A stretch of 64,000 nt of DNA. It comes from Haloprofundus halobius (GTDB lineage Archaea; Halobacteriota; Halobacteria; Halobacteriales; Haloferacaceae). This document shows, in pieces, positions 8,751 through 12,618 of this stretch. The notes beneath the pieces were generated by a model. It made no database searches and was not told where the DNA came from. It was given only the letters and a program-made list of their open reading frames with translations. The position numbers and the translations under genes were made by a program. The DNA lies in NCBI RefSeq assembly GCF_020097835.1, contig NZ_CP083666.1, forward strand, positions 3,162,001 to 3,226,000. Reading direction: 5' to 3'. How positions within the stretch are numbered: position 1 is the first letter of the stretch; every line of letters starts with the position of its first letter.

Positions 8751-8778
8751 TTCGGCGACGGGGCGGACGTTCCCCGAA

Positions 8779-9273
8779 TCAACGTTCGGTAAACACGTCC
8801 TCGGGAAGCGAACACGTCTCTCCAACGTGCGTCGAGATGTCTCGCTCTCCTCTGACGACCACGAGGGCGTACTCCTCGGGAACGTCGTGGTACTCGCTCA
8901 GTCCGATTCCTTTGACGAGGCTGTTCCCGGAAACGATACCCTCCCGAACGCCGTCCCCGACGATACCGGCACGCCGGAGCGCGTTTCTCTCGACACAGGC
9001 GTCCAAAAAGGCCAGCCGCCACCGCCGGTCGCCCACGAGTTCGTCCAACTTGACGACGTCGCTCCTGTCGAAGGTGGGTTTGAGTTCGAGCAAAAGCAGT
9101 TGCCCGTCTCTGTGGGCGATGAGGTCGACTTTCTTCGAGCCTCGGCTCCCCTTCTCGCTCGAATCGGGATGTTTCGCCTCGATTCGTGGCAGCGCGTCCG
9201 TCCCACCGGGTGGTTCCCCTCCTACCAACGTCCATCCGGAGCGGTTCAGAAACCACTTCGCGTACATGTACAT
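8779..9273 (-). CDS. PD-(D/E)XK nuclease-like protein of the restriction-modification island
   Basis: About 164 residues. The core KKVDLIAHRDGQLLLLELK (near residues 47-65) is a textbook PD-(D/E)XK pattern: Asp in a first strand, then a short turn, then an E-x-K strand, with an upstream Glu in RIEAKHP. This predicts a metal-dependent DNA nuclease. The gene is last of three on the same strand after the methyltransferase fusion. A TATA-like box 24-30 nt upstream of the ATG at 9273 suggests that this ATG, not the GTG at 9291, is the start and that the message is leaderless. Role is inferred: restriction endonuclease or an accessory nuclease of the system. Confidence 0.6.
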   Translation of the reverse strand: MYMYAKWFLNRSGWTLVGGEPPGGTDALPRIEAKHPDSSEKGSRGSKKVDLIAHRDGQLLLLELKPTFDRSDVVKLDELVGDRRWRLAFLDACVERNALRRAGIVGDGVREGIVSGNSLVKGIGLSEYHDVPEEYALVVVRGERDISTHVGETCSLPEDVFTER

Positions 9274-9295
9274 TTCGGGCTCGGATACCACAGCC

Positions 9296-9304
9296 CTAAT
9301 ATCG
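9296..9304 (-). promoter_or_regulatory. TATA-like box for the small nuclease gene
   Basis: Read on the minus strand this is gatatta, centred about 27 nt before the ATG at 9273. That spacing is typical of leaderless haloarchaeal transcripts and supports the shorter start of the gene. Confidence 0.45.
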
Positions 9305-9364
9305 GATATTCGGACCTTCTATCCTTCGCATACGTCTCCCGACGCGGACTACCCGATCCGGTCT

Positions 9365-10327
9365 CTAGAAGTCGTGCAAGACGCCGTCCTTCAGCGAGAT
9401 CGCGTCCGCGGTTGCGTACCAGAGCGCGCTCTTGCGCTGCGGGTCGTTGGGGTTCTTCTCCACCCACGTCTCGACGGGGACTTTCGGAACGTCGATGACG
9501 AGATTTCGGTGCTTGTCCCGCGGATCCGGTCCCTCTCTGCACCAGCCGTAGTCGTAGACGAACTGCATTCCCGTATAGGGGTCCTCTCGACGACATTTCT
9601 CCGGCGACATGTTGCACTTGTAGACGAGCGTCTCCGCCCGATTCGTGAACTCCTCGGAAACGTCGACGTCTCCGCGGTCCGTCTCCCACTCGGAGACGAG
9701 CGCGTCGGTGTCGCGTATCGTCGCGCTTCTCGGGAGCGATTCGTAGCGCGGGTTCACGCCCACGGAGCGGTCGTACCCCCAGCGCATCTCCTCTCTGATC
9801 TCCGTTGCCGTGTCGAGTCCCACTATCGAGCAGTCGTTGTCGAGGAACTCGGTGACGAATCTCGAAATCAGCTCGTCCTCGGAGCCGTCGGTGACGAGCT
9901 CCGCATCGTCGTCACACGGCCAGTTGATGCTCCAGAACGGGGCCTCGTGGATCGACGATACCTCCCACATGGCCGTGAAGTAGCGGGCGTTGGCGTAACA
10001 CCGTCCCGCGTGGGTCCCGTGTTTCATCGCGAGGTAGGGAAAGAAGATGATGGAGGGGACGTCGTGTTCGGCCGCCCGAACCATGCGGCCGAACCGCTGT
10101 CCCATGTTGTGTCCCGACGGCACCTCGGAGCTCTTCTCGACCACCAGTACGGGCTCTCCTCGGTCCGTGAGGATGATGTCTGGACGGTCGTAGTCGAGCA
10201 ACCGTTCTATCTCCTCGGGGAGTCCGCCGTTCAGGAGCCGATACTCCGTCTCCCGTAGTCGGTCGTCGAGTCGCTTGAACCACAGCGCCTCCTGCGGTTC
10301 GTCGGCGTATATCCGGAGAGTAGTCAT
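9365..10327 (-). CDS. Putative restriction endonuclease of the methyltransferase-glycosylase system
   Basis: A 320-residue protein with no close family that I recognise. Residues 48-66 (RPDIILTDRGEPVLVVEKS) look like a PD-(D/E)XK half-site: PD strand, turn, then a hydrophobic strand ending in Glu-Lys, though the usual E-x-K spacing is shifted by one. Several Cys and His residues lie in the second half (YKCNMSPEKCRRED), which could bind zinc. It sits between the methyltransferase fusion and the small nuclease, all on the minus strand, and has its own TATA box. Restriction function is inferred from position and the nuclease-like core. Confidence 0.5.
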   Translation of the reverse strand: MTTLRIYADEPQEALWFKRLDDRLRETEYRLLNGGLPEEIERLLDYDRPDIILTDRGEPVLVVEKSSEVPSGHNMGQRFGRMVRAAEHDVPSIIFFPYLAMKHGTHAGRCYANARYFTAMWEVSSIHEAPFWSINWPCDDDAELVTDGSEDELISRFVTEFLDNDCSIVGLDTATEIREEMRWGYDRSVGVNPRYESLPRSATIRDTDALVSEWETDRGDVDVSEEFTNRAETLVYKCNMSPEKCRREDPYTGMQFVYDYGWCREGPDPRDKHRNLVIDVPKVPVETWVEKNPNDPQRKSALWYATADAISLKDGVLHDF

Positions 10328-10351
10328 TCAACGAATTATTCTAGATACGTC

Positions 10352-10359
10352 ACTTATAG
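10352..10359 (-). promoter_or_regulatory. TATA box of the putative endonuclease gene
   Basis: The minus-strand sequence ctataagt lies 25-32 nt before the ATG at 10327, in an AT-rich 127-bp gap after the methyltransferase gene. The spacing implies a separate, leaderless endonuclease message, which would allow control apart from the methyltransferase. Confidence 0.5.
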
Positions 10360-10454
10360 CTATTTCTAGGCTTCCGTCGCGTTCCCCCCGACGACGGACA
10401 AACACGAAAAGATCGACTGCGTGACTCCGGCGGCCATCGGACACCACCAACTCC

Positions 10455-12296
10455 TTACTCGTAGCAGTCGCACTCGTCGCTGACCGGGCAACGGTCACAG
10501 TCGGGCGACGTGGCGGTACAGATCTCTGCCGCATGGTCCAACAGGGCCATACTGTACCGTTCGAAGTCGTCTTCTGGAAGGAGGGACCCCGCGAAATCCC
10601 AGAGATACTCGTCGTCGAGGTGTCCGTCCTCGACGTTCAAATCGAACACACGAGCGTAGAGTCGCGCGACGTTCTCGTCTACGACAGGTCTCCGTCGACC
10701 GAATCCGAAGCACAGCGTTGCGTTCGCCACGTAACGCTCCACGTGGGGAAGATCGAGCAATTTCTCCTCCGAGTCCGGGATTCCAGAAAACACGAGTTTG
10801 CTCGCAATCTTCCGGAACGCCTTCGCGTACTCGTCGTTCGGTTCGAGCGGTCGTAGAATCTCGGCCAGTTCGTCCTCGCTCGCTCCCTTGAGAGTGCCAA
10901 AATCGGGATATCGGTCGGTGAAATCCCGATACACCGGCTCGGCGTTCTCCGGTAACGCGCGTTGGAGCAACATCTGCGCGACGAACACCTCGTACGGCGA
11001 ACAGTCGGGGGTCCGCCAAGGGAACTCGCGACGGTTCTCCTCGCCCCACTCGAGCAACTTCTCGCGGAATGGCTTTGCTCTGTAATTCGTCGCGATAGCT
11101 TCTCCGAGTCGCTGTGCAAGCAGCGGCGGAACCGCCATTCCCGTCTGGACGCGTCCCTGAACGACGCCGCCCTCGAACACGTAGTGGTCCGGGAACGACT
11201 GTATCCGAGCGCGTTCTCTGACCGTCAAGCCGCGGCTCTGCTCGGGATGTCCGTACTGAAACTGGGGTCGAATGCCGCCGGCGATGATGGTCGGCCCGGG
11301 CTGGTCCGGATGGAGCCTGATCCGCTGTCTGAAACGATCGTACATCGGCTCGCCCGGCTCCGTGTTCTTCACTCGGTCGACGGTGGTCTGTCGGTGGTTC
11401 GGTGCCTCGTGGTTGTGTAACCGTCCGTCCTCGATGTCGGCACCCGCCGGGGTTTCTCGCATCGACTCCGCGAATGCCGACAGCGGTTCCGAATCGTACC
11501 GTTCGGTCTGTTCGCCCGCGTCGACCGCCGGGAGGTCCGAGAGAGCCTCCGAAATCGTTCGAGGGTCGTCAGCGTGCGTTGGCTTCGGCCAAGTCAGCGG
11601 GTGCCCGTTTCTCGCACCCATGAAGAAGAGGCGTTTACGCTTCTGCGGAACGCCGTACTCCTCCGCGCTCAGCACTCGATAGTCCGTCGCGTAGCCCAAC
11701 CGCTGGAGGCACTCCACGACGGCCTCCACGAACTCGCCGTCCTTCGCGGCCTTCATCGTAGAGACGTTCTCGACGAGAACGAACCGCGGTTCGAGAATCT
11801 TCACCGCCCGGACGAACTCCTCGAACAGGTAGTTTCGCTCGTCCTCGTCGTGCTGTTTTCTGTTTGCGATCGAGAACCCCTGACAGGGGATTCCAGCGGT
11901 CAAGACGGCGAGTTCTTCCCCGCTGAGCGCGTCCTCGGCAACGGTCCCGAGGAGGGTGTCGACGTCGACGCGTTCGTCGTCGATGACGTCGAAGATGTCG
12001 CGGTCGTCGTCGGCGCGCTTGTTGATTTCTCGGATGTCCCCCAAGATGGCGTGTGCGTGCGGATGGTTCCGCTGGAACGTCTCGATAGACGGTTCGTGGA
12101 TGTCGACACCGAGGACGGACTCGAACCCCGCCTGTTCGAGTCCCTGAGAGAGCCCTCCCGGACCGCAGAACAGGTCGATAACCTTCGGGGCGTCGCTCCG
12201 TGACGCCCCGTCACGCGGTGGTCGATGTTGCGCTTTCTCTGACCAGTTGTGACGGTTCTCCTCTATGTCCTCGTCTACGCTCCAAGCGTCAGACAT
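10455..12296 (-). CDS. DNA (cytosine-5)-methyltransferase fused to a thymine-DNA-glycosylase-like HhH-GPD/4Fe-4S domain
   Basis: A 613-residue, two-enzyme protein. Residues 38-405 are a complete C5-methyltransferase: motif I DLFCGPGGLS (41-50), catalytic PCQG (137-140), ENV (176-178), QKRKR (218-222), a target-recognition region and ERARIQSFPD (361-370). Residues 408-613 are an endonuclease III/MutY-fold glycosylase: FPWR (425-428), LLQRA, helix-hairpin-helix LPHVERYVA (516-524), catalytic Asp540 in VVDENV, and a 4Fe-4S loop with Cys593, 600, 603 and 609 in the standard C-x6-C-x2-C-x5-C spacing. Tyr522 occupies the Lys120 position of endonuclease III, as in the T:G glycosylase MIG of Methanothermobacter. 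The likely role is to methylate a host DNA site and to repair T:G arising from m5C deamination. The recognition sequence is unknown. Confidence 0.9.
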   Translation of the reverse strand: MSDAWSVDEDIEENRHNWSEKAQHRPPRDGASRSDAPKVIDLFCGPGGLSQGLEQAGFESVLGVDIHEPSIETFQRNHPHAHAILGDIREINKRADDDRDIFDVIDDERVDVDTLLGTVAEDALSGEELAVLTAGIPCQGFSIANRKQHDEDERNYLFEEFVRAVKILEPRFVLVENVSTMKAAKDGEFVEAVVECLQRLGYATDYRVLSAEEYGVPQKRKRLFFMGARNGHPLTWPKPTHADDPRTISEALSDLPAVDAGEQTERYDSEPLSAFAESMRETPAGADIEDGRLHNHEAPNHRQTTVDRVKNTEPGEPMYDRFRQRIRLHPDQPGPTIIAGGIRPQFQYGHPEQSRGLTVRERARIQSFPDHYVFEGGVVQGRVQTGMAVPPLLAQRLGEAIATNYRAKPFREKLLEWGEENRREFPWRTPDCSPYEVFVAQMLLQRALPENAEPVYRDFTDRYPDFGTLKGASEDELAEILRPLEPNDEYAKAFRKIASKLVFSGIPDSEEKLLDLPHVERYVANATLCFGFGRRRPVVDENVARLYARVFDLNVEDGHLDDEYLWDFAGSLLPEDDFERYSMALLDHAAEICTATSPDCDRCPVSDECDCYE

Positions 12297-12381
12297 GATA
12301 CTCTCGGTTGAACATGACTTGTGACTGTGTCGACGCGGTGTCTCTCAATGTCGTCTCTATCGTTTTCTCTTTCCTATCGCA

Positions 12382-12389
12382 TTTATACC
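12382..12389 (-). promoter_or_regulatory. Possible TATA box for the methyltransferase fusion gene
   Basis: The minus strand reads ggtataaat here, a good haloarchaeal TATA match, about 90 nt before the ATG at 12296. The implied leader of about 60 nt is longer than usual, so it may belong to another transcript. The rest of 12297-12546 contains no gene that I can support. Confidence 0.35.
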
Positions 12390-12546
12390 CTTTCAGACTT
12401 GATTTGAATCTCCTCCGAGCGGGTGAACGAGAGAACCCGAGCGAACATCGACGGGTCGCCGTAAGCGTGGAGGCGACGAACCGAACTGAGAAACTGCCAT
12501 AACGCGGACGAAAACGAGCGCGCTCGTCGTGTGAGTTCGTGAGAAG

Positions 12547-12618
12547 AGCCTAGGCCGGGATTTGAACCCGGGCTCTCGTCCTTACCAAGGACGCGCTTTA
12601 CCGCTAAGCTACCCAGGC
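12547..12618 (-). tRNA. tRNA-Thr (anticodon GGT)
   Basis: A 72-nt cloverleaf can be folded on the minus strand. The acceptor arm starts gcctggg and closes with cctaggc (one G-U pair). The anticodon arm is cgtcc-ttggtaa-ggacg, placing GGT at positions 34-36. The T arm includes ggttcaaatcc, and the discriminator is U, as expected for haloarchaeal tRNA-Thr. No intron is seen and CCA is not encoded. Its 3' end points toward the restriction-modification island, the usual side for integrated elements. Confidence 0.95.

What the first reader, a model, noticed from the sequence alone, without database searches (positions are those of the whole stretch)
10455..12296. DNA cytosine-C5 methyltransferase fused to a thymine-DNA-glycosylase-like 4Fe-4S domain
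Seen: one 613-residue ORF has a full set of C5-methyltransferase motifs followed by a complete HhH-GPD domain with Tyr522 in the HhH loop, Asp540 and Cys593/600/603/609 in C-x6-C-x2-C-x5-C spacing. Known: MIG of Methanothermobacter, the T:G glycosylase beside a C5-methyltransferase, uses Tyr126 and Asp144 at the equivalent sites; in bacteria Vsr repairs T:G at Dcm sites. Inference: this halophile joins methylation and repair of its own deamination damage in one protein, so the glycosylase is tethered to the methylated sites. Whether this fusion has been described I cannot check.
Basis: partly seen in the sequence, partly recalled or inferred. Interest (0 to 1): 0.88.

Follow-up and report, generated by a model that had tools for sequence, protein, structure and literature searches.

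The report
Methyltransferase fused to repair-glycosylase-like domain
A salt-loving archaeon carries a restriction-modification system whose DNA methyltransferase is joined in one protein to a domain descended from an enzyme that repairs the mutations such methylation causes, but that domain has lost several otherwise fixed residues here and looks inactive in its three known sister proteins.

Summary
The 613-residue ORF has an intact C5-cytosine methyltransferase (residues ~38-401) followed by an HhH-GPD/4Fe-4S domain (~406-613). Y522, D540 and C593/600/603/609 align with Tyr126, Asp144 and the four cluster cysteines of Mig.MthI (1KEA). The second domain groups with Mig-like proteins, not MutY or Nth. 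It is the genome's only C5-methyltransferase.

It heads a horizontally placed three-gene module next to tRNA-Thr. The other two genes resemble a BtsI/BsrDI/BsmI-type heterodimeric restriction endonuclease, so this is a Type II R-M system.

The fusion occurs in 4 of ~390 haloarchaeal genomes searched, all Haloferacaceae. Elsewhere the same two proteins are separate neighbouring genes, the known Mig.MthI arrangement.

"Complete" is too strong. At positions invariant or nearly so in 43 stand-alone relatives, the window protein has E42Q, T48A, A50P and G124E (Mig numbering). The three sister fusions all lost the catalytic Tyr; two also lost Fe-S cysteines, and their domains evolve fast. All four frames stay open, so the domain is retained. 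Tethered T:G repair is plausible for the ancestor, about 40% likely for this protein, and unlikely for its sisters. New variant of a known kind.

The parts
10455..12296 (-). fusion gene: C5-cytosine DNA methyltransferase + Mig-like HhH-GPD/4Fe-4S domain, 613 aa
11094..12185 (-). C5-methyltransferase domain, residues 38-401: FCGPGG, PCQ (Cys138), ENV, QKRKR, AVPP
   Evidence: Pfam PF00145 2.7e-64; Cys138, ENV and most motif residues invariant in four fused proteins
10458..11081 (-). Mig-like HhH-GPD domain, residues 406-613; Y522, D540, N542, R545 kept; Q441, A447, P449, E520, M583 differ from Mig
   Evidence: AlphaFold2 pLDDT >90 over most of the domain, 1KEA TM 0.89
10470..10520 (-). 4Fe-4S ligands C593, C600, C603, C609 (C-x6-C-x2-C-x5-C)
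9365..10327 (-). 320-aa probable large subunit of a Type II restriction endonuclease (PD-(D/E)xK-like D50...E64), resembling BsmI/BtsIB
   Evidence: PADLOC 'Type II nicking endonuclease' in 8/8 members, best 7.9e-7; predicted fold matches BsmI E=1e-6, prob 1.00
8779..9291 (-). 170-aa probable small restriction subunit, PD-(D/E)xK (D56...E69-x-K71), Hjc/AHJR-like, size of BtsIA
8753..12532 (.). inserted three-gene module; the related species G019 has only about 49 bp here
   Evidence: blastn of flanks to L089; GC 0.607 against 0.656 for the window
12546..12618 (-). tRNA-Thr(GGT) at the edge of the module (flank)
   Evidence: ARAGORN, also at this place in four same-genus genomes

Best explanation
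This is the modification subunit of a Type II restriction-modification system that includes a BtsI/BsrDI-like two-subunit nuclease. A Mig-type T:G mismatch glycosylase, which in relatives is a separate gene next to the methyltransferase gene, was joined to the methyltransferase's C-terminus once, in an ancestor of four Haloferacaceae systems. SHOWN: domain order, Mig-like ancestry, gene cluster, single origin of the fused domain. INFERRED: in the ancestor the methyltransferase recognised the site and the tethered glycosylase removed T from T:G pairs left by deamination of its own 5-methylcytosine, leaving an abasic site for base-excision repair. After fusion the glycosylase no longer needed to bind DNA by itself, so its hairpin glycine and minor-groove-reading loop were free to change. 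The window protein keeps the chemistry residues (Tyr522, Asp540, Asn542, 4Fe-4S cysteines) and may retain weak tethered T:G/U:G activity (about 40%). In the three sister systems catalysis is most likely lost, and the folded domain is kept for a non-catalytic role, such as stabilising or positioning the methyltransferase.
For: Domain calls and 1KEA as best match. The fused glycosylase domains form one clade (100/99) inside the haloarchaeal Mig-like group, apart from MutY. The same methyltransferase-plus-two-nuclease module occurs without the glycosylase in four other genomes. A Thermus plasmid carries a related methyltransferase (47% identity) with a Mig-like gene in an overlapping separate frame, a plausible pre-fusion state. 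29 of 43 stand-alone Mig-like genes have a recognisable C5-methyltransferase within 5 kb, 20 within 150 bp. Residue table: Gly124 lost in 4/4 fused and kept in 43/43 stand-alone; Tyr126 lost in 3/4 fused and kept in 43/43. Rates: at 69-78% methyltransferase identity the fused glycosylase domains are 36-51% identical, against 58-61% for unfused pairs at 72-74% methyltransferase identity. All four domains keep an open frame where 8-29 stops would be expected under neutrality at 0.5-1 changes per site.
Against: No activity is demonstrated. The window protein's own branch is not fast (0.32-0.36), which fits a working enzyme as well as early decay. Only four fused sequences exist, so the loss pattern rests on few lineages. 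dN/dS values are near saturation. The BsmI match is a fold match to a model of moderate confidence (pLDDT 76). A heterodimeric enzyme of this type usually comes with two methyltransferases; only one C5 enzyme is found here.
Confidence: 0.7

Rival explanations
1. Fully working write-and-repair enzyme: the fused domain is an active, sequence-targeted T:G glycosylase in this organism.
For: Y522, D540, N542, R545, W427, R446 and all four Cys are kept; a hydrophobic residue (M583) at the Leu187 position excludes the MutY-type Gln; short branch in the tree. From memory, untested here: human MBD4 excises T from T:G without a Glu at the position of Mig Glu42.
Against: Q441, A447, P449 and E520 replace residues invariant or nearly so in 43 stand-alone relatives; an acidic residue sits in the phosphate-binding hairpin; all three sister fusions lost the Tyr.
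Confidence: 0.4
2. Non-catalytic remnant in all four proteins: the domain is a structural or DNA-binding appendage of the methyltransferase.
For: Loss of the HhH glycine in 4/4, of Tyr in 3/4 and of Fe-S ligands in 2/4; fast evolution of the domain but an open frame kept in all four.
Against: The window protein retains the catalytic Asp/Tyr pair and the full cluster motif, which a mere scaffold would not need.
Confidence: 0.45
3. The second domain is a MutY (A:G) or Nth enzyme carried along by chance.
For: NCBIfam mutY model matches at 6e-36, though far below its cut-off (124 against 286 bits).
Against: 1KEA scores above every MutY; AU test p = 0.023 against grouping with MutY; no MutY C-terminal domain; no Lys at the Nth position; the genome has its own MutY and Nth.
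Confidence: 0.05
4. The glycosylase is the restriction arm, a base-excision restriction enzyme like R.PabI.
For: Base-excision restriction enzymes exist (PMC10273834).
Against: The gene cluster already holds two nuclease-like subunits, also present in systems without the glycosylase; tethering a restriction activity to the protective methyltransferase makes little sense; PabI resembles neither REases nor other N-glycosylases (PMC4081073).
Confidence: 0.03

Closest known systems
Mig.MthI of Methanothermobacter thermautotrophicus (1KEA) with its C5-methyltransferase
   Same: HhH-GPD with 4Fe-4S, Tyr126/Asp144 equivalents, partnered with a C5-methyltransferase of an R-M system
   Different: there the two are separate proteins; here they are one chain, and Glu42, Thr48, Ala50 and Gly124 are replaced
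Vsr endonuclease with Dcm and R-M systems of bacteria
   Same: proposed purpose: undo T:G made by deamination of the partner's 5mC
   Different: Vsr is a nicking endonuclease of another fold and a separate protein
BtsI / BsrDI / BsmI Type IIT restriction endonucleases
   Same: large subunit about 320 aa plus small about 170 aa (BtsIB about 38 kDa and BtsIA about 19 kDa, worked out from the concentrations in PMC2909958); fold match to BsmI
   Different: BtsI has two methyltransferases, none reported with a glycosylase; recognition site unknown here
E. coli MutY
   Same: fold, Fe-S cluster, catalytic Asp
   Different: Val45/Gln182 specificity residues absent; no C-terminal domain; separate clade

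Membership tests
C5-cytosine DNA methyltransferase | ordered motifs with catalytic PC | tested here: met
   Pfam 218 bits over 38-401; Cys138, ENV and QxRxR invariant in four fused proteins
C5-cytosine DNA methyltransferase | makes 5mC at a defined motif | not testable with these tools
   needs bisulfite or EM-seq
Mig (T:G mismatch glycosylase) | HhH-GPD fold with C-x6-C-x2-C-x5-C cluster and no MutY C-terminal domain | tested here: met
Mig (T:G mismatch glycosylase) | Tyr126 and Asp144 | tested here: met
   Y522, D540; Tyr is Ala in the three sister fusions
Mig (T:G mismatch glycosylase) | conserved Glu42 and HhH Gly124 | tested here: not met
   Q441 and E520; Glu in 42/43 and Gly in 43/43 stand-alone relatives
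Mig (T:G mismatch glycosylase) | Ala50/Leu187 thymine-type pocket instead of MutY Val45/Gln182 | tested here: inconclusive
   P449/M583: neither Mig nor MutY type
Mig (T:G mismatch glycosylase) | groups with Mig in a tree | tested here: met
   (95/85 for the Mig-like group without MutY; AU p 0.023 against grouping with MutY)
Mig (T:G mismatch glycosylase) | T:G and U:G excision | not testable with these tools
   biochemistry needed
MutY | clade with MutY; Val/Gln specificity residues; C-terminal 8-oxoG domain | tested here: not met
Type IIT restriction endonuclease (BtsI/BsrDI-like) | large plus small PD-(D/E)xK-type subunits encoded together | tested here: met
   (by fold and weak profile match, not activity)
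Type IIT restriction endonuclease (BtsI/BsrDI-like) | two methyltransferases, one per strand of an asymmetric site | tested here: inconclusive
   one C5-methyltransferase in the window genome, a second one adjacent only in G038; N4/N6 enzymes were not searched

The most novel reading that the evidence does not exclude
One polypeptide both writes 5-methylcytosine and excises the thymine that results from its deamination, its glycosylase half having given up autonomous DNA binding (lost hairpin glycine) because the methyltransferase half delivers it to its sites.
Probability: 0.38. Interest if true: 0.72.

Novelty: new variant of a known kind. Interest (0 to 1): 0.52.

Why it matters
5-methylcytosine makes mutation hotspots, and R-M systems carry their own repair partners (Vsr, Mig). 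A physical fusion would be the tightest coupling of writing and repair, and the four systems form a natural series from near-intact to broken glycosylase. That makes testable whether tethering relaxes the need for the repair enzyme's own DNA binding, and what happens to mutation at methylated sites when the repair half dies while methylation goes on.

Tried and rejected
MutY/Nth identity was rejected by scores, tree and AU test. A chance ORF or assembly join was rejected, because four species share the fusion. Further fusions were sought in 391 Halobacteria, 170 Haloferacaceae and 393 phylum genomes, GTDB contigs, plasmids, phages and IMG/VR: none beyond the four. The first impression that a Thermus plasmid carries the fusion was wrong: two overlapping frames. 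Long open frames around other methyltransferase hits (L098, L099) hold no glycosylase. Literature searches for the fusion found nothing, but the key Mig papers are not held. YN00 dN/dS failed on the divergent pairs and NG86 is near saturation. The idea that the insertion site is a defence hotspot was not borne out: same-genus genomes have ordinary genes there.

Full report
THE OBSERVATION. The ORF at 12296..10455 on the minus strand encodes 613 residues without interruption. Pfam finds a C5-cytosine methyltransferase over residues 38-401 and HhH-GPD plus the endonuclease III Fe-S motif over 439-609. A search of the second domain alone against all solved structures ranks Mig of Methanothermobacter (1KEA) first at 104 bits, MutY at 91, Nth at 36. 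An AlphaFold2 model gives the second domain pLDDT mostly above 90 and matches 1KEA at TM 0.89, above MutY at 0.83. In that model one helix (391-421) runs from the methyltransferase into the glycosylase domain.

SURROUNDINGS. Downstream on the same strand lie a 320-aa and a 170-aa gene. The 320-aa protein has an invariant PD...E core. All eight relatives found match PADLOC's Type II nicking endonuclease model (best 7.9e-7), and its predicted fold matches only BsmI with confidence (E 1e-6, probability 1.00). The 170-aa protein has D56...E69-x-K71, and relatives match Hjc/AHJR-like nucleases. BtsI consists of a recognising, bottom-strand-nicking large subunit and a small top-strand-cutting subunit (PMC2909958); the concentrations given there imply about 38 and 19 kDa, the sizes seen here. 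Type IIT enzymes of this kind, including BsrDI, are reviewed in PMC4081073. The simplest reading is a Type II R-M system with a heterodimeric nuclease; this rests on fold and weak profile matches. Search of 391 Halobacteria genomes with the 320-aa profile gives eight strong hits, all beside this methyltransferase subfamily: four with the fused glycosylase and four without any.

MOBILITY. The three genes occupy 8753-12532 between an AMP-ligase gene and a tRNA-Thr/DUF7114 gene. In the related species G019 only about 49 bp lie there. GC is 0.607 against 0.656 for the window. The fusion is found in 4 of 170 Haloferacaceae genomes, in four different genera, and nowhere else searched.

ANCESTRY OF THE SECOND DOMAIN. 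Two trees place the four fused domains in one clade (100/98, 100/99) within haloarchaeal Mig-like proteins, with MutY outside. Forcing the fused domains together with MutY is rejected at p-AU 0.023. Of 43 stand-alone rows (42 distinct; L035 and L104 are the same record), 29 have a C5-methyltransferase within 5 kb and 20 within 150 bp; three of those loci had been picked because they hit both domains. A Thermus plasmid holds a 47%-identical methyltransferase with a Mig-like gene in an overlapping frame. Adjacency followed by fusion is therefore the likely path.

IS THE DOMAIN ALIVE? In Mig numbering, stand-alone relatives are invariant or nearly so at E42 (42/43), T48 (43/43), G124 (43/43), Y126 (43/43), D144 (43/43) and N146 (43/43). 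The window protein has Q, A, E, Y, D, N; H. marisrubri H, S, D, A, D, A; G038 E, T, D, A, D, N; G088 E, A, T, A, D, R. H. marisrubri and G038 also lost Fe-S ligands. Y126S abolishes T/G activity of Mig.MthI, and Glu42 is proposed to bond the thymine (PMC2714593). So the three sisters, which share a common ancestor in the tree (99-100% bootstrap), most likely lost catalysis once, at the Tyr. The window protein is the least altered and its branch is not fast, but it already carries the hairpin change common to all four, plus changes at Glu42, Thr48 and Ala50. Relative to the methyltransferase, the glycosylase half diverges faster in the fused clade than in unfused pairs (for example 78% against 39% for G038/G088; about 73% against 60% in unfused pairs). 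Yet no frame is broken, where chance would have produced many stops, so the folded domain is kept by selection. Its role in the sisters is presumably not catalysis.

MECHANISM. Shown: architecture, ancestry, gene cluster, sole C5-methyltransferase of the genome. Inferred: the methyltransferase brings the glycosylase to its own motif, where 5mC deaminates to T; the glycosylase makes an abasic site that general base-excision repair fills. I give about 40% that this still works in the window protein. The alternative, a retained non-catalytic domain, is about as likely. Only biochemistry can settle it.

KNOWN AND NEW. Mig beside a C5-methyltransferase in an R-M system is known. The covalent fusion, its confinement to four related systems, and the graded loss of the glycosylase site were not found described in the literature searched, which lacks the primary Mig papers and REBASE.

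Noticed in passing
L004 6001-7860; L038 6209-8044; L039 5439-7472: The three sister fusions have Ala instead of the catalytic Tyr and in two cases broken Fe-S ligands: a natural series of glycosylase decay inside an intact methyltransferase.
   Followed up: yes
L068, L069, L070, L071: The same methyltransferase plus two-subunit nuclease module exists without any glycosylase, with the methyltransferase gene divergently oriented. In L070 the methyltransferase is split into two frames.
   Followed up: partly
L038 4703-5959: A second C5-methyltransferase lies directly upstream of the fusion in G038, as expected for a two-methyltransferase Type IIT system; the window genome has only one C5 enzyme.
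   Followed up: partly
window 12546-12618: tRNA-Thr(GGT) borders the inserted module. In same-genus genomes this spot is empty (G019) or holds ordinary genes.
   Followed up: yes
L100-L122, L040-L056: Mig-like glycosylase genes next to C5-methyltransferases are widespread but patchy in Halobacteria. A separate clade (e.g. L110, L115-L120) has no recognisable methyltransferase nearby.
   Followed up: partly
L036 2910-4965: Thermus plasmid pTthSNM6-6d carries another methyltransferase/Mig-like overlapping pair whose glycosylase groups with Mig of Methanothermobacter.
   Followed up: no
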